From: a virus
Strand: one strand, 5' to 3'
Virus record (IMG/VR): IMGVR_UViG_3300047586_000088
Coordinates: 1 to 53,950 of that record
Length of the DNA stretch: 53,950 bases
Positions 1-46,362 of the stretch are shown here, in pieces. Position numbers and translations under genes: made by a program. The notes below the pieces were generated by a model that saw only the letters and a program-made list of their open reading frames with translations, did not search any database and was not told where the DNA came from. Position 1 is the first letter of the stretch, and the number at the start of each line of letters is the position of its first letter.

Positions 1-213
1 GTCGGCGCCGCAGCGCGGGCAGAGGCCGGCCTGGTGGTACTTGGCGGATACCCGCTCCGACCGGGGAAACACCGCCTTGCAGGCCATGCAGCCAATATCG
101 GTGGGGCCGATGCGCCGGGCGAGGATGCAGAGCGGCGAGTTGTCGTCGTCATCTCGGTCGTCGATCAAGCGGAGTAGCCGCTCGTGTAGGCGTTGCTGAG
201 CCTCGATAGTCAC
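1..213 (-). CDS. Zinc-ribbon protein, N-terminal part (gene crosses the join)
   Basis: GTG start at 213 behind an AGGAGG ribosome site. The 71 codons here continue across the circle join at 53823 and the frame stays open to 53479, about 185 residues in all. Residues around 43-70 hold two Cys pairs (CMAC and CPRC) typical of a zinc ribbon. After the second pair the frame turns Arg/Pro-rich and overlaps a better-looking gene at 53451-53696, so the true end is uncertain. The function is unknown; small zinc ribbons in phages are often nucleic-acid or protein binders. It is the last gene of the minus-strand unit that ends near the RHH gene. Confidence 0.6.
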   Translation of the reverse strand, partial: MTIEAQQRLHERLLRLIDDRDDDDNSPLCILARRIGPTDIGCMACKAVFPRSERVSAKYHQAGLCPRCGAD

Positions 214-2171: not shown

Positions 2172-2200
2172 ATACTAACCCTGCATATGCAGCGTGTCAA
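2172..2200 (-). promoter_or_regulatory. Early leftward promoter with operator in the spacer
   Basis: Minus strand TTGACA (2200-2195), 17-base spacer, TAGTAT (2177-2172). The spacer contains the perfect 12-bp palindrome CTGCATATGCAG (2181-2192), so a bound repressor would block RNA polymerase directly. It drives 2096-1439. Confidence 0.85.
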
Positions 2201-2320
2201 GAGGTTTGGTATGATGATCCTTGATACTGCATAGGCAGTTTGCCCCTAAACGGGCCCCCTGCATTGGCAGTTATCAGGGATCATCATAGGTCGGCTCTTG
2301 ACTAGAGACTGCGTATGCAG
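2181..2320. promoter_or_regulatory. Array of four CTGC-N4-GCAG operators
   Basis: Four 12-bp palindromes: CTGCATATGCAG (2181-2192), CTGCATAGGCAG (2227-2238), CTGCATTGGCAG (2259-2270) and CTGCGTATGCAG (2309-2320). The outer two sit inside the spacers of the two divergent promoters; the inner two are 32 bp apart centre to centre, close to three helical turns. The region between is itself a large imperfect dyad: ATGATGATCC (2211-2220) and GGATCATCAT (2278-2287) are perfect inverted copies. This looks like a cooperative repressor switch; iterons of an origin are the alternative. Confidence 0.8.
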
Positions 2321-2326
2321 TAGTCT
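2298..2326 (+). promoter_or_regulatory. Early rightward promoter with operator in the spacer
   Basis: TTGACT (2298-2303), 17-base spacer, TAGTCT (2321-2326) on the plus strand. The operator CTGCGTATGCAG fills the last 12 bases of the spacer, mirroring the leftward promoter. It drives the seven-gene plus-strand operon 2359-4184. Confidence 0.85.
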
Positions 2327-2358
2327 AGGGGTGTCAGAGAGAGCCAGGAGAAAACGAG

Positions 2359-4291: not shown

Positions 4292-5755
4292 CTAATACGA
4301 TTCTCGCCAATGCAGTGCGACGATCACGAGGTCCTGGCTGTCGATCACCCCGTCCTGGTTGACATCGGCCCGGATCCAGCCAGGCGGCCCCGTCTCCAGC
4401 CAGTGCGCGTCGACGGCCTCCACGTCGGCCACATCCACGCGGTAGTCGCCGTTCACGTCCCAGGCGGGCGGCGTCGGCGTGGGACTCGGGGTGACTGTTG
4501 GAGTCAGCGTCGGCGTGTTGGTCGGTGTGGGACTCGGAGTATCGGTCGCGGTAGCCGTCGCCGTTGGAGTCGCCGTGTAGGTCGCGGTCGGGCTCGGTGT
4601 CGCGGTCAGCGTCGGCGTGAACGTAGGCGTTGGCGGCGTGGGCACGGTCGTCGGAGCGGGCGTGCTCGTCACCGTGCGGGTCGGGGTCGGAGTAGTCGCC
4701 ACTCGCCAGGTCACGGTGAGCCGAGGGGCGTTGGCCGCTGAGCCCTCGTAACTCGTGACGAACTTGCGTGCCCAGGTACCGCCCGAACCCTTGAGGACGA
4801 GCGAGAGGGCGTTGCCACTCTGCCAGTCGGCGCGGTTGACGACCTCCTGCACGACCGCTGGCATCTCACCCAAACTGTGCCAGGTGCCCGCGAGCCACTG
4901 GGAACCGTCGCTGAACGTCAGGCTCATCGTGCCGAGCGTCCGCTGTGACGGCTTGCTGGTCGTCGAGAACGCAGCACTGTTGCCCGATGCCTCAGCTCGG
5001 AGCACGAGCGATGTCGAGATCCAGCTCGCGGCGGGCTGGTAGACGTCGAGGTGCGCCGAGGTGATGACCGCACCCCGTGGGACTATGACGCCCTGGAACC
5101 TGACGCCCGTGTAGCCTGCCGTCGTCGACGATGCATTGCCAATCCAGACGGTCGAGCCGCCAGCGGTGAACGTCGTACCGTCCTCGTTCACGTCGTCCGC
5201 GCCCGAGGCAACCTGGAACGTGCCGAGCAGATCGCTGCCAGAGGGGGTCGGAGTGGCCGTCGGTAACACGGTCCGTGTCGGCGTGGGCGTCGAGGTGCGG
5301 GTCGCCGTCGGCAGGACGATCGGCGTCGGGGTGAGCGTCGGTATTCGAGCATCCGGGTAGTCGTAGCCGATCACTGAGGCCGTAAACTGCTGGTCCGCTG
5401 AGACGACGACGGTGCCGCTGAACGGACTCGGGATCTGCGCCATGTCGGCGACGTGGTACTGGTTGTTCGAGTTGGGTGGCAGCGAGTCCTCGAACTGGTA
5501 AACGGGATTGCCGCCGGCGTCCTTGAACGTGTGCAGCACGGCCAGCGCCGTCGTGTTGCCGTTGTAGACCGAGTACACGGTCTCCGCCCCAGAACCCGGC
5601 GTCGGCACGGCGTCGATCGCCGCCACGGGCACCACCTGAAAGGCGCGGTCTGGCTGGAACGTTGCCCCCGCGAGGCTCGGTCGGAGCAACAGCGCGAGGG
5701 CAATCAGCAGCGCCACAATCACCAAGGCGAGGACGTGATAGCGGCGGAGGGTCAT
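4292..5755 (-). CDS. Secreted Thr-Pro-rich protein with C-terminal dockerin
   Basis: 487 residues. A signal peptide (RR at 4-5, long hydrophobic core to about residue 29, then AGA) is followed by a beta domain (about 32-137), a TPTPT linker, a beta-sandwich domain resembling DNRLRE carbohydrate-associated domains (about 178-350), a second TP/TAT linker of about 75 residues, and a type I dockerin: [20 protein letters not shown] and [20 protein letters not shown] are the two calcium-loop duplicates. Such proteins are normally part of cell-surface or cellulosome-like assemblies, not of phages. It is the last late gene, after the holin and a zinc ribbon, so it would be exported from the infected or lysogenic cell. 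The linker style points to a Chloroflexota-like host (inference). Confidence 0.85.
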
Positions 5756-35912: not shown

Positions 35913-36319
35913 TCCTTGGCCTCCTTGCCCTGGTCTCCCTCGTCAGGATCGCCCGTCGAGTAATACTCGACGTCCTCCATGACCTCATGGATGGCGGGGT
36001 CGGTCAGCACGGGCACCCGTGCGAGGGTTGCAGTTGCCGAGGCCTCCTTGCCGTCGAGGGCGGCGAGGGCGGCGTCGAAAACTTCCTGTGCCTCGAACAC
36101 GTGTGAGTCGAGTCGTGCGACTGTTTCCGCCCATTGCGCGTAGGATTGGGCAGACACGTCGTACTCGGGCAACTGGGCTAACTCCCTTTGCGCTCGCTTC
36201 ATATTCCTCGCCGCCACAGCCACCGCTTCGAGGAGTCGCATGCGCTCTCTATCCTGCTTGGCCTTCGCCTCGAAGTCGCGTATCACGTCGCGGAAGGACG
36301 CCGTTTGCCACTCACTCAC
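35909..36319 (-). CDS. Hypothetical protein with YYST C-terminal domain
   Basis: 136 residues. Helical N-terminal two thirds (FEAKAKQDRERMRLLEAVAV) and a C-terminal segment ARVPVLTDPAIHEVMEDVEY then YST, homologous to the end of the protein at 3394-3798 on the other arm. The domain shared by two otherwise different proteins is unexplained. Confidence 0.65.
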   Translation of the reverse strand: MSEWQTASFRDVIRDFEAKAKQDRERMRLLEAVAVAARNMKRAQRELAQLPEYDVSAQSYAQWAETVARLDSHVFEAQEVFDAALAALDGKEASATATLARVPVLTDPAIHEVMEDVEYYSTGDPDEGDQGKEAKE

Positions 36320-36801
36320 GGTTGTGCCTCTGTCACTGCGAGATAGACCTGACGGTCTAACTTAACCTTGCCGCTCTTTCGGAACGACCTGCGACGCGCC
36401 GAATCCTGACGATGGCACTCTCTACATCGTCGCCTACCCTTGTTATAGGTCACATTCGAGCCTGACAGTAGATGTCCTTTCGGACAGTGAATATGGAGGC
36501 TTTGCTGATGGCTGATGCTGTTCTCGTGAAGCAAGTAATGCTCAGTTGCCCTTACCAACATAAGGTGATCGGGATTGACGCAGCGGCGATTTTCACAAAA
36601 GTGATGCAGACTATAGCTATCAGGAACCGGCCCGTTAACCCATTCCCAGGCAAGACGGTGAGCATACACGCGCTTCGTGCTGGGGGCATCCGCCTTAATC
36701 TGACCATAGCCATCTGATAATGCGCCAGTCCAAGGCCAACAACCCTCGACCTTGTCCACGTATCGCCAGAACCGTTCCGTCAGAGGTATCACTCTCACCA
36801 T
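36316..36801 (-). CDS. HNH homing-type endonuclease (third copy)
   Basis: 161 residues from ATG 36801 (TAATG overlap). CWPWTGALSDGYGQIK, VYAHRLAWEWVNGPVPD, LHHFCENRRCVNPDHLML form the HNH_3-type nuclease with its zinc Cys. The C-terminus holds an extra zinc-like knuckle (HCPKGHLLSG and RRRCRECHRQ) instead of the HTH of the other two. It is embedded between ordinary small genes with coupled starts. Confidence 0.85.
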   Translation of the reverse strand: MVRVIPLTERFWRYVDKVEGCWPWTGALSDGYGQIKADAPSTKRVYAHRLAWEWVNGPVPDSYSLHHFCENRRCVNPDHLMLVRATEHYLLHENSISHQQSLHIHCPKGHLLSGSNVTYNKGRRRCRECHRQDSARRRSFRKSGKVKLDRQVYLAVTEAQP

Positions 36802-37373
36802 TAGGGCTGCGCCTCCTCTCGATATCGCTCGACCATCGCCGTCAGGCGGGCGACCTCGGCACGGAGTGCCTCTGTTTCTGCACAGCGAACACATGCCGTT
36901 GGGCCGCCCGCTACCGGCGTTCCGCAATGGCGACATCGGCGCACGGTCCAACCGTCGTAGAACGTCTCCTCCTGTTCACCGAGTGCAGTCAGCATTTCCT
37001 CCCGCCCCGGCTCCCGCCGTCTCAGGCGGGCGACCTCGGCCTCGGCACGATCGGCACGGGCGCGGGTAGAGTCGCGTTCTGCCCTGAGCGATTCATACCG
37101 TTGTCCCAGGTCGTCGTAACCTCCAATGCAACGATAGAGGCTCGATTGAGTAGGAACGAGCAACCTCCTCGCCTCGTCTCTCTCCCCCTCGACCCTCCTG
37201 AGCGATGCGAGCGCCTGGTCTGCACGCCAGTTGGCGTCGTCTCGCTCTGACTCGACACCACGGAGATCGCCAATCAGACGGAGCGTATCTCTCGCCCCTA
37301 GCAAACAGCCCTTGTGGGCGGCATGCTCGATGATCTCGACCTCCTCGGGCGTCAGAATGCGCGGCTCAGACAT
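36801..37373 (-). CDS. Coiled-coil protein with C-terminal zinc ribbon
   Basis: 190 residues from ATG 37373. Long coiled coil (residues about 40-125: ERDDANWRADQALASLRRVE, RADRAEAEVARLRRREPGRE) then a zinc ribbon CRHCGTPVAGGPTACVRC and a final helix (AEVARLTAMVERYREE). Function unknown. Confidence 0.65.
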   Translation of the reverse strand: MSEPRILTPEEVEIIEHAAHKGCLLGARDTLRLIGDLRGVESERDDANWRADQALASLRRVEGERDEARRLLVPTQSSLYRCIGGYDDLGQRYESLRAERDSTRARADRAEAEVARLRRREPGREEMLTALGEQEETFYDGWTVRRCRHCGTPVAGGPTACVRCAETEALRAEVARLTAMVERYREEAQP

Positions 37374-42616: not shown

Positions 42617-43195
42617 CTAGATATCTCGCCAGACCTTTCGGCGAAGGATCCTCCAGACCCCAGCTTGACTAAGGCCAAACCTCTTGGCGAGGGCCTTCTG
42701 AGTCACCCCGGGCATGTGAGCCTGGGCACGCATCTCCCTAACCTGATCTACCGTCACCTTATGCCCGGGGTGAGCCTCTCCCCTGGGTAATCGTTCTGGA
42801 TGAGTACGCGAGCCGTTTGCATCCCCCTTGCAGCGACTCTCGGGATGCGTGTATGCCCCGGACCGCGTTCCATATGGCCAGTTAGCCCGCCCCTTAGCGA
42901 TCTTGTCGCGCATGTTGTCCAGATCGGTTCCAAGGGACAGATGAGCGGGGTTACAGCAAGGCGGGTTGTCGCACGAGTGCAGTACGCGAAGCCCCTCCGG
43001 GATAGGGCCGACGGCGACTTCGTAGGCAAAGCGGTGCGCCGGCACGCGGCGGCCAGCAAGCGCGAACCGCCCATAGTCGTCGGAGCCTGTTGCTGTTTGC
43101 GGCATCCGGACCCCGAGCCATGGCCAGCAGGCGTTCGGCCCTCCGGACTTGTCCACCTTGGGCCAGAAGTCGGCGGGTGTGTGCTTGCGTGTCAT
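42617..43195 (-). CDS. HNH homing-type endonuclease (second copy)
   Basis: 192 residues. CWPWLGVRMPQTATGSDDYG, VPAHRFAYEVAVGPIPEGLR, CDNPPCCNPAHLSLGTDLDN form an HNH_3-type nuclease; the C-terminus has an HTH (VTQKALAKRFGLSQAGVWRI). It shares its layout with the copy at 43775-44365, so they are likely duplicates. ATGA overlap with the DUF1064 gene. Confidence 0.85.
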   Translation of the reverse strand: MTRKHTPADFWPKVDKSGGPNACWPWLGVRMPQTATGSDDYGRFALAGRRVPAHRFAYEVAVGPIPEGLRVLHSCDNPPCCNPAHLSLGTDLDNMRDKIAKGRANWPYGTRSGAYTHPESRCKGDANGSRTHPERLPRGEAHPGHKVTVDQVREMRAQAHMPGVTQKALAKRFGLSQAGVWRILRRKVWRDI

Positions 43196-43593: not shown

Positions 43594-43778
43594 CAGCGCG
43601 CCACCTCCGCCAGCCCGGGCAGCGGGGTCGCCCCGAGCCTTCGGAGCACCAGGTCGACGGGGAGCCGCTCCTTCCGCTTGCAGCCGGGGCGAGTGCAAAT
43701 CAGGTACTCACCCCACCCGTTCGCCCGGATCTCCAGGATCGCGCCGCAAGCTGGGCACCCCTTCGTGATGTTGCTCAT
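43593..43778 (-). CDS. Small zinc-ribbon protein
   Basis: 61 residues. CPACGAILEIRANGWGEYLI then CTRPGCKRKE matches a topoisomerase-type C4 zinc ribbon. Overlaps the HNH stop (ATGA) and the DUF1064 start. Confidence 0.7.
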   Translation of the reverse strand: MSNITKGCPACGAILEIRANGWGEYLICTRPGCKRKERLPVDLVLRRLGATPLPGLAEVAR

Positions 43779-44365
43779 GCGCTCACCTTCTCCCGCCAGG
43801 TCATACCCTGGACGACGAACTGGATAGCGCGCTTCGAGACACCGTAGAGGCCGGCCAGGGCCATCAGGGTCTCGCCTTCTCGCCGACGCTCCCGGATCTC
43901 GCGGACCTTCGCCCAGGTCAGCTTCGCCCAGCCGTTCAGCTCACCACGCCTGCGCTGCTCGGGGTGCGTGTAGGCGCCGTTCAGTTCGCCCCAGGCGGCT
44001 TTTTCCGGATGGAGGTGCGGCCAAGCCTGATCGCCTCTCGGCAGGCGCCCCTTGGCGATGCAGTCCCGCATGTTGTCCAGGCCAGTGCCAAGGAAAAGGT
44101 GAGCAGGGTTGACGCAGCGACGGTAGGAGATATCGCCCACTGAGTAGCTCGCGTCACAGTTGTGGCAGACCATCATGCCCTCTGGGATCGGGCCAACGAA
44201 CAGCTCATAGGCAAGGCGATGCGCCAGCACCCCACCGCCTGGCCCTTTGTGCAGGTGCATCCGGCAGTAGCCGTTGGGGTAGGGCTTGCCGCGCCAGAGC
44301 CAACAGGAATCGGTCTTGTCGACGCGAGCCAGGAATCGCTCGGTCAGGGTTAGATCTCGGGACAT
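43775..44365 (-). CDS. HNH homing-type endonuclease (first copy)
   Basis: 196 residues from ATG 44365. CWLWRGKPYPNGYCRMHLHK, LAHRLAYELFVGPIPEGMMV, CHNCDASYS, CVNPAHLFLGTGLDNMRDCI form the HNH_3 nuclease; the C-terminus carries an HTH (GETLMALAGLYGVSKRAIQF). It has its own promoter and a long structured leader (44402-44533). Upstream same-frame residues come from the leader and the helicase shadow and are not part of it. Confidence 0.85.
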   Translation of the reverse strand: MSRDLTLTERFLARVDKTDSCWLWRGKPYPNGYCRMHLHKGPGGGVLAHRLAYELFVGPIPEGMMVCHNCDASYSVGDISYRRCVNPAHLFLGTGLDNMRDCIAKGRLPRGDQAWPHLHPEKAAWGELNGAYTHPEQRRRGELNGWAKLTWAKVREIRERRREGETLMALAGLYGVSKRAIQFVVQGMTWREKVSA

Positions 44366-44401
44366 AGCAGAAACCCCCGCATCGAATCCGTTGCCAGCAC
44401 C

Positions 44402-44533
44402 GCCTACCACAGCAGAGCGGGATACGGAACGACGCGAAGGTTCTGCACACTCCCCAAAGGGAGCGTCCATAGGGCGCGTGTGCTGGCATTCTGCCCTAGA
44501 AATGCAGAATCCCGCTAGACTGCCGTGGTAGGC
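44402..44533 (-). ncRNA. Structured RNA leader upstream of the HNH gene
   Basis: A long stem encloses the whole segment: 44402-44410 pairs with 44525-44533 (9 bp), 44412-44415 with 44520-44523 (4 bp) and 44416-44423 with 44509-44516 (8 bp), with one mismatch and a 3-base bulge. Inside are GCACAC (44445-44450) with GTGTGC (44478-44483), CTCCC-CAAA-GGGAG (44450-44463) and ATTCTGC (44488-44494) with GCAGAAT (44504-44510), so a multi-branched fold is likely. It begins at the predicted transcription start and ends about 36 bases before the ATG. No known RNA family recognised. Confidence 0.65.
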
Positions 44534-44539
44534 ACCCTT

Positions 44540-44568
44540 AGAGTAGCACTCTGACAGGCGGGTGTCAA
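44540..44568 (-). promoter_or_regulatory. Promoter of the structured leader and HNH gene
   Basis: Minus strand TTGACA (44568-44563), 17-base spacer, TACTCT (44545-44540), beginning next to the helicase stop. Transcription would start near 44533, the first base of the long stem. Confidence 0.8.
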
Positions 44569-46362
44569 TCATCTCAGCACCATCTGGGCGATGTGGTGTG
44601 TCGTGACTTGAGCTGCCTGCCCCTTGGTCATGCCGTCCCGCCAGATGCCCCAGCGGGCGAGGAGCCTTCGCTGCTTGTCGGTCGCCGGCTCGCGCCGCCA
44701 GCCGCGCTTGCGTTGTGCCAGCACGCCGTCCGCGTGCTCGTCCGCCCACTCCTCGGCGACCTCGGAGGCCTGCTCCCAGGTCGGAGCGAGGCCAAGCAGC
44801 GCTCCCTCGTGCTCCTCGACGACGTAGACTCGGAAGCTCCTCACTTCCTGGTAGGTCCGCTCCCAGCGGGGCTCCCAGCGGCCCGAGGCCCGCAGCGCGT
44901 CCGCCTTCGCGACACGCTCCGCGTCGGGGAGTCGGACCGCGAGGATATGGCGCTCGCCCGCCGAGGCCGAGGCGAGCTTGCCGTCGAACGTCCAGGCGAG
45001 CCGGTGATTCGAGAGGTAGTCGAGGACCGCGAGCTGGACCGCGTCCGGGTCGGCGTCGATCCCTGAGCCGTCGGAGCGGATCCCGAAGGAGTCCAGCACC
45101 ACGCCGGCGGCCTTCGCCCGCTCCTCCGCCTTGCGCTGCTTCCGCGGCTTGCCGAGGAGGTCGCCGGCCATCCGGAGGTCCCGGGCGTCCTCGGGGACCA
45201 TGTCCATCAGCAGCAGCTCGGTCTTCCCGGGGTAGAGCCGGAGGCCTCGGCCGGCCATCTGCACGTAGACCAGATCGCTCTTGGTAGGCTTGATCTGGAG
45301 GATGCAGGAGGCCATCGGGAGGTCGAGGCCCTCGGTCCAGAGCTGGGCGTTGGCGATGATCCTGGTCCGACCTTCCCGGAAGCGCTGGAGGATCCCCCGC
45401 CGGTCGTCTCTGTCGGTCTCGCCGTCGGCCGCCTCGGCCGCCACTCCTGCCCGGCGGAAGGCCTCGGCGAGCGAGTAAGCCTGGGCGACGCTCGCCGTGA
45501 AGGCGATGGTCGGCCGGCTCTCGGCGTGCTTCTTCCAGGTCTCGACGATCACCGTCTCGGCGTTGTCGGCTGACAGCACTCGGCCGGCCGACTCGTCCTC
45601 CCAACCGTTCTCGCCGGTCTCGGGGACGCCGGCGAAGCTGACCGGGAGCTGGACGGCAACCGCGACGAACGGGCAGAGCGCTCCAGCCCTGATCGCGTCG
45701 CGGATCGAGATCCGGTAGGCGACCGACTTGAATACCCGCGAGAGCCCGTCGCCGTCGGTCCGCTTGGGCGTCGCCGTGATGCCGAGGAGCCGGAGATCCG
45801 GGTTGTGCGCGCGAAGGCGCTTCGCCAGGTCGAGGTTCGTCCTCGCCGGAAGGTGATGGACTTCGTCCCAGATGACGTGGCTGATCCGGCCGTGGGCGAA
45901 GATCCGGGCGAGCCTGGCCGGGTTGGCGAGCGTCTGGACGGTGGCGGCGATGATCCGAGCGTCGGAGTCGTCGCGACTCGCCTGGACGATCCCGGCGGGC
46001 GCGAGGTCCGGCCAGCTCCGCTCGATCCTCTCGACCGGTTGATCGACGAGCTCAGTTCTGTGTGCCAGCCAGAGGCAGCGCTCCAGCCTTCCGGCCTCGT
46101 GCTCGGCCTGGAGCACGCCGAAGCCGAGCTCCGACTTGCCTGTGCCGGTCGCGGCAGCGACTAGAGTGGCCAGATGTCCGGCCGCCCATTCTCGAAGCAC
46201 CGCGTCTCTGGCCTCGCGCTGGTAGGGGCGGAGAGTGATCCGAGGTTCTGCCGGGTGGTCTTCATGCAGGGCGAAGAGGTTGCCGGATCCGGCTAAGGGT
46301 TGGTTAGCCGGCCCGTTGAGGGGTTGTTCCCGGTCGTGTACATGATTAATCATGATGGTCAC
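44569..46362 (-). CDS. DEAD/DEAH-box SF2 helicase
   Basis: 597 residues from GTG 46362 with GGAGG 9 bases upstream. Motif Q/I: LRPYQREARDAV and AAATGTGKSE; motif II DEVHH; motif III GITATPKRTD; motif V/VI NAQLWTEGLDLP and QMAGRGLRLYPGK. The C-terminal 150 residues are family-specific and end with a helical domain (TDKQRRLLARWGIW). Likely acts in replication or recombination. It overlaps the gene upstream by 17 bases. Confidence 0.9.
   Translation of the reverse strand: MTIMINHVHDREQPLNGPANQPLAGSGNLFALHEDHPAEPRITLRPYQREARDAVLREWAAGHLATLVAAATGTGKSELGFGVLQAEHEAGRLERCLWLAHRTELVDQPVERIERSWPDLAPAGIVQASRDDSDARIIAATVQTLANPARLARIFAHGRISHVIWDEVHHLPARTNLDLAKRLRAHNPDLRLLGITATPKRTDGDGLSRVFKSVAYRISIRDAIRAGALCPFVAVAVQLPVSFAGVPETGENGWEDESAGRVLSADNAETVIVETWKKHAESRPTIAFTASVAQAYSLAEAFRRAGVAAEAADGETDRDDRRGILQRFREGRTRIIANAQLWTEGLDLPMASCILQIKPTKSDLVYVQMAGRGLRLYPGKTELLLMDMVPEDARDLRMAGDLLGKPRKQRKAEERAKAAGVVLDSFGIRSDGSGIDADPDAVQLAVLDYLSNHRLAWTFDGKLASASAGERHILAVRLPDAERVAKADALRASGRWEPRWERTYQEVRSFRVYVVEEHEGALLGLAPTWEQASEVAEEWADEHADGVLAQRKRGWRREPATDKQRRLLARWGIWRDGMTKGQAAQVTTHHIAQMVLR

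What the first reader, a model, noticed from the sequence alone, without database searches (positions are those of the whole stretch)
44366..44571. A promoter-driven, highly structured RNA leader in front of an HNH endonuclease
A consensus promoter (TTGACA-17-TACTCT) starts transcription at the foot of a stem of about 21 bp that encloses some 130 bases with at least three inner hairpins. That is far more structure than a terminator or a simple RBS-masking hairpin, and it fits no class I can name. It could be a mobile or self-acting RNA, a regulator that delays the endonuclease, or a guide-like partner of the HNH protein, although the protein lacks IscB features.
Basis: partly seen in the sequence, partly recalled or inferred. 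Interest (0 to 1): 0.8.

Follow-up and report, generated by a model that had tools for sequence, protein, structure and literature searches.

The report
Two-state RNA leader before phage endonuclease
Just upstream of a DNA-cutting (HNH) gene, an uncultured bacterial virus carries a roughly 170-base, unusually structured stretch that could fold into either of two rival RNA shapes, one of which hides the gene's ribosome-binding site; it probably tunes when the enzyme is made, but no relative was found that could prove it.

Summary
A TTGACA-17-TACTCT promoter (44568-44540) places a predicted start at the foot of a 14+8 bp stem (A/B, 44533-44402) enclosing smaller hairpins. This is the most GC-corrected-stable 170-nt window of 1,266 in the 54-kb phage contig. 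No fold among 300 shuffles matches it. It shows no codon bias, although the frame is open.

The two folds lie within about 9 kcal/mol, and which one wins depends on the energy parameters. A 9-bp pseudoknot (D) could favour A/B. In silico, A/B forms first and F becomes possible only when the last bases before the ATG are transcribed.

Best explanation: a cis-acting leader that limits or times translation of a free-standing HNH homing-type endonuclease. It would act like the T4/Aeh1 endonuclease hairpins, but with a larger, two-state architecture and a promoter that retains the whole structure. There is no Rfam match and no homologous leader among HNH relatives or in the collections searched, so no covariation test was possible. 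A guide-RNA role is unsupported. Function remains inferred.

The parts
44540..44568 (-). promoter TTGACA-17-TACTCT; lies just downstream of the helicase stop codon
   Evidence: 4 such sites in window, 0.11 expected
44402..44533 (-). conformation 1 (A/B): helix A 44533-44520/44415-44402 and helix B 44516-44509/44423-44416, enclosing hairpins C and E
44447..44466 (-). hairpin E, ACGCTCCC-TTTG-GGGAGTGT (8 bp)
44488..44510 (-). hairpin C, ATTCTGC/GCAGAAT
44392..44488 (-). potential pseudoknot helix D, TGCCAGCAC 44488-44480 with GTGCTGGCA 44400-44392, 9 bp perfect, crosses A/B
   Evidence: not modelled by the folding programs
44371..44443 (-). conformation 2 (F): GAACCTTCGCGTCG/CGATGCGGGGGTTT, 14 bp plus inner CCGT/ACGG; 3' arm contains the GGGGG ribosome-binding site; excludes A/B
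44374..44378 (-). GGGGG Shine-Dalgarno-like site, 8 nt before ATG
   Evidence: paired in the Turner-2004 ensemble
43775..44365 (-). 196-aa HNH_3 endonuclease (homing type)
   Evidence: Pfam HNH_3 E 8.6e-10; PHROG HNH families
44569..46362 (-). upstream ResIII/DEAD helicase gene, intact C-terminus

Best explanation
The 44533-44366 stretch is the 5' untranslated leader of the HNH gene, transcribed on the minus strand from its own promoter and also carried by read-through from the helicase gene. It is a cis-acting translational control element with two mutually exclusive folds. While the RNA is being made, the long A/B stem forms first and encloses the 5' arm of F. Once the last bases before the ATG appear, that arm can instead pair with the ribosome-binding site as hairpin F, which holds translation down. 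The balance between A/B (probably helped by pseudoknot D) and F would set how much, or when, the homing-type endonuclease is made. Shown from sequence: the repeats, the promoter, the competing helices, and the significance of the fold. Predicted by folding only: the order of folding and the masking of the ribosome-binding site. Inferred: that it is transcribed, that the switch operates, and that it limits endonuclease expression.
For: Exceptional structure: minus-strand z -4.8, 0 of 200 shuffles; most extreme of 1,266 windows, with the minus strand more stable than the plus, -82.1 vs -72.5 kcal/mol. Both the best fold (-85.9, z -4.5) and the best fold using none of its pairs (-77.7, z -5.4) beat all 300 shuffles. 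The main imperfect helices carry 4 G.U on the minus strand and 0 on the plus, as expected if the minus-strand RNA is what folds. No codon periodicity (GC1/2/3 = .60/.60/.56) against GC3 .80 in the HNH body. Truncation series: A/B probability 1.0 up to 44380, then F 0.84-0.99. With Turner-2004 parameters A/B has 13% for RNA starting at 44533 and at most 0.3% for read-through RNA. Precedent: RNA structures hiding the ribosome-binding site of I-TevI, mobE and segB (PMC2988022, PMC3014915).
Against: No homologous leader was found, so there is no covariation. Upstream regions of HNH relatives are no more structured than those of control genes (mean z -0.52 vs -0.68). The modelled cost of opening the SD-ATG region (9.8 kcal/mol) equals that of leaders with shuffled upstream sequence and is typical of other genes here. 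In the A/B state the SD can still pair weakly with early coding sequence, so the modelled on/off contrast is modest. Which fold wins depends on the energy parameters. No transcript evidence.
Confidence: 0.5

Rival explanations
1. A 5'-terminal stable structure that only protects the mRNA or insulates the HNH gene from the helicase transcript; no switch. The stem at +1 would hinder 5'-end-dependent decay.
For: Predicted start coincides with the foot of stem A; stem A is the strongest helix (-27 kcal/mol).
Against: Does not explain why a second, incompatible set of helices (F, D) is equally improbable by chance.
Confidence: 0.17
2. A separate small non-coding RNA (trans-acting, or a phage structural or packaging RNA) that happens to precede the HNH gene and shares its promoter.
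For: Own promoter, discrete compact fold, noncoding composition.
Against: No terminator-like site between it and HNH; no Rfam match; helix F runs to within 6 nt of the HNH ATG, tying it to that gene.
Confidence: 0.12
3. A DNA-level element (protein-binding or recombination site, or remnant of an inserted element made of inverted repeats); the RNA fold is a by-product.
For: The plus strand also folds significantly, as inverted repeats must; lower GC than flanks; the nearest syntenic relative L148 lacks both leader and HNH at this place, as for an inserted block.
Against: G.U asymmetry 4:0 in favour of minus-strand RNA; minus fold clearly stronger; single copy, no related element in phages, plasmids or E. 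coli genomes.
Confidence: 0.12
4. The region is coding: the HNH frame is open back to an ATG at 44572 that overlaps the helicase stop (ATGA), giving a 69-residue N-terminal extension.
For: Open frame of 69 codons and ATGA overlap.
Against: No codon bias or GC3 excess in that frame; no protein family or viral relative for the extension; the listed phage tblastn matches all begin near the internal start; a ribosome-binding site stands 8 nt before that ATG.
Confidence: 0.07
5. Guide-like RNA that works with the HNH protein (IscB/IsrB/HEARO-like).
For: Position directly 5' of an HNH gene, large structured RNA with a possible pseudoknot.
Against: No HEARO or other credible Rfam match even at E 5; protein is 196 aa with only an HNH_3 domain; no homologous RNA next to 80 HNH relatives; single copy, no transposon ends seen.
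Confidence: 0.02

Closest known systems
RNA structures sequestering the ribosome-binding site of T-even phage homing endonucleases (I-TevI, I-TevII, I-TevIII, T4 segB, Aeromonas phage Aeh1 mobE; reviewed in PMC2988022)
   Same: Free-standing (segB, mobE) or intron homing-type endonuclease in a phage; helix over the Shine-Dalgarno about 8 nt before the ATG; a promoter close upstream; the gene also lies on read-through RNA from upstream genes.
   Different: There a single hairpin, and the late promoter lies so that late transcripts lack the inhibitory arm. Here the promoter lies upstream of the whole structure, the leader is about 170 nt, and it has two incompatible folds plus a possible pseudoknot. 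No sequence relationship shown.
Translational riboswitches and kinetically controlled leaders (metastable folding in nascent RNA; general knowledge)
   Same: Early-forming anti-sequestering stem competes with a late-forming sequestering hairpin.
   Different: No ligand, no known aptamer, no Rfam match.
HEARO / omega RNA of IsrB/IscB
   Same: Structured RNA immediately 5' of an HNH-encoding gene.
   Different: No RuvC domain, no Rfam HEARO match, not associated with HNH relatives.

Membership tests
T-even-type homing endonuclease RNA-hairpin control | Gene encodes a homing-type endonuclease of phage | tested here: met
   HNH_3 Pfam hit above cut-off and PHROG HNH families; homing activity itself not testable
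T-even-type homing endonuclease RNA-hairpin control | Shine-Dalgarno paired in a stable helix | tested here: inconclusive
   Helix F pairs it, 2% unpaired, but the opening cost is no higher than with shuffled upstream sequence, and the A/B fold competes
T-even-type homing endonuclease RNA-hairpin control | Nearby promoter whose transcripts lack the inhibitory arm | tested here: not met
   Promoter 44568-44540 lies upstream of both arms of F
T-even-type homing endonuclease RNA-hairpin control | Structure shown to reduce translation | not testable with these tools
   needs reporter assay
HEARO / omega RNA (IscB, IsrB) | Match to the Rfam HEARO covariance model | tested here: not met
   no HEARO match at gathering score or at E up to 5
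HEARO / omega RNA (IscB, IsrB) | Neighbouring protein has RuvC plus HNH domains | tested here: not met
   only HNH_3, 196 aa
Group I or group II intron / known ribozyme | Match to an Rfam intron or ribozyme model | tested here: not met
   upstream helicase C-terminus intact
Retron ncRNA | Adjacent reverse transcriptase | tested here: not met
   no RVT_1 in the contig

The most novel reading that the evidence does not exclude
A phage-encoded two-state RNA switch (a kinetic or ligand-sensing translational riboswitch with a pseudoknot) that controls a selfish homing endonuclease, of a class not in Rfam.
Probability: 0.2. Interest if true: 0.65.

Novelty: new variant of a known kind. Interest (0 to 1): 0.42.

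Why it matters
RNA control of homing endonucleases is documented mainly in T-even phages, with single hairpins. A large bistable leader in an unrelated high-GC phage would suggest that this kind of control arose independently and can be far more elaborate, and would give a compact model for studying co-transcriptional RNA switching. As an orphan with no homologues it is at present a good candidate rather than a demonstrated regulator.

Tried and rejected
Rfam at gathering score and at E up to 5: only a chance hit. Nucleotide search of phages, plasmids and E. coli genomes: none. Exact and gapped patterns of helix A, of the D/F region and of the E/F region in viral contigs: none, or unrelated chance hits; the apparent cluster of 118-nt spans proved to be redundant copies of a few unrelated sequences. 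Helix A pattern in bacterial genomes: none. Covariance models of A/B and of F over 80 HNH loci and two helicase relatives: only the window itself. Model R1 was built with a mistyped structure and not used. First attempt at the alternative-fold test failed technically and had off-by-one SD coordinates; it was redone. One search printed identical numbers for three energy sets, so it counts as one set only. Structured leaders as a trait of the HNH family: rejected by control comparison. Retron and TnpB-type associations: rejected.

Full report
What is there. The window is a whole IMG/VR virus record of 53,950 bases, a high-GC tailed-phage-like contig with terminase, ParB, DNA polymerase III beta clamp, Toprim primase-like protein, ERF and a ResIII/DEAD helicase. 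The helicase gene ends at 44569 and the HNH gene starts at an ATG at 44365, both on the minus strand. Between them lie about 200 bases holding a promoter-like TTGACA-17-TACTCT (44568-44540) and the structured stretch. Sites of the form TTGACA-16..18-TANNNT occur four times in the window against 0.11 in shuffles, so the promoter call is credible, although its -10 is weak and a stricter scan did not list it.

Anatomy, minus-strand RNA numbering by window position. Helix A: GCCUACCACGGCAG 44533-44520 with CUGCUGUGGUAGGC 44415-44402. Helix B: AGCGGGAU 44516-44509 with AUCCCGCU 44423-44416. Hairpin C around 44510-44488 and hairpin E 44466-44447 lie inside. A perfect 9-bp complement D (44488-44480 with 44400-44392) crosses A/B. 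A further long helix F (GAACCUUCGCGUCG 44443-44430 with CGAUGCGGGGGUUU 44384-44371) takes its 5' arm from inside A/B and its 3' arm from the ribosome-binding site GGGGG (44378-44374), 8 nt before the ATG. In a pseudoknot-free model A/B and F exclude each other.

Is it more than chance? Yes. The folding energy is 4.8 standard deviations below dinucleotide shuffles, with none of 200 as good. Among 1,266 windows of 170 nt on both strands of the contig it is the most stable for its GC content. The best structure avoiding every pair of the optimal one is also better than all 300 shuffles (z -5.4). Inverted repeats make both strands fold, so strand matters: the minus strand is about 10 kcal/mol more stable, and the mismatches in the main helices are all G.U on the minus strand (4 against 0; a small number). 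That points to RNA of the minus strand, the coding strand of HNH.

Coding or not? The leader is an open frame in register with HNH back to an ATG at 44572 that overlaps the helicase stop. It has no codon periodicity (GC1/2/3 .60/.60/.56; -0.37 bits per codon against +0.17 for the HNH body), no family match and no viral relative. The listed phage tblastn matches of the extended protein all begin near the internal start. I treat it as untranslated, while noting that one other HNH gene of this contig also has poor codon bias, so this is strong but not final.

How it would work. In a series of growing transcripts, A/B forms with probability 1.0 once its 3' arm is out (RNA end at 44404 to 44380). 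F takes over when the last bases before the ATG are made (Turner 2004). With the start of the coding region included, RNA beginning at the predicted start 44533 keeps 13% A/B, while read-through RNA beginning at 44573 or further upstream has 0.3% or less. Across four energy sets and two temperatures the two folds differ by between about +7 and -9 kcal/mol, so which is favoured is not decided by calculation. The D pseudoknot, nominally -16 kcal/mol of stacking, would favour A/B. Hence the proposal of a bistable leader that limits or times HNH translation. Two results temper it: the total cost of opening the ribosome-binding site is not unusual for this genome, and in the A/B state the site can still pair weakly with early codons.

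Relatives. The HNH protein belongs to a widespread family (HNH_3; more than a thousand phage records match, all below 60% identity). Eighty viral loci were fetched. None has a related leader by nhmmer or by covariance search, and their upstream regions are no more structured than those of control genes. The two other HNH_3 genes of the window have no leader related in sequence. The nearest syntenic relative found, L148 (helicase 42% identical, with a relative of the 692-aa gene upstream and a primase downstream), has neither HNH nor leader after the helicase. This is compatible with leader and HNH having arrived together, but the relative is distant.

Known systems. T-even phages and relatives keep their homing endonucleases silent early in infection with RNA helices over the ribosome-binding site (I-TevI, I-TevII, I-TevIII, segB, Aeh1 mobE; PMC2988022; PMC3014915). 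The present leader works, by inference, like these. It fails one of their defining traits, because its promoter lies upstream of both arms so its transcripts keep the inhibitory helix, and it is much larger and two-state. It is therefore not filed as a member. Guide-RNA, intron, ribozyme and retron readings were tested where possible and not supported.

Verdict. A real, statistically outstanding, apparently orphan structured leader. The most probable role is cis control of HNH expression (about 0.5). No covariation evidence could be had, and transcription and function are unproven.

Noticed in passing
window 2172-2330: Four copies of a palindromic operator-like site (CTGCATATGCAG and variants at about 2180, 2226, 2258, 2308), none elsewhere in the window, lying in the spacers of or between two divergent promoters; a Cro/C1-type HTH protein is encoded at 321-854. 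Looks like a repressor-controlled lysogeny switch.
   Followed up: partly
window 36316-36951 and 42617-43195: Two further HNH_3 endonuclease genes on the same strand; neither has a leader related in sequence to the one studied.
   Followed up: partly
window 4292-5755: A phage protein with a C-terminal dockerin type I domain (Pfam E 2.5e-9), unusual for a phage.
   Followed up: no
L085:2690-5590: The helicase relative in IMGVR_UViG_3300048592_000232 carries an apparent intein inserted at the Walker A motif (ORF read-through GMGK...HNTHLL).
   Followed up: no
window 44569-44572 and 43775-43778: ATGA stop/start overlaps at the helicase end and at the HNH end, suggesting translational coupling in the operon.
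   Followed up: partly
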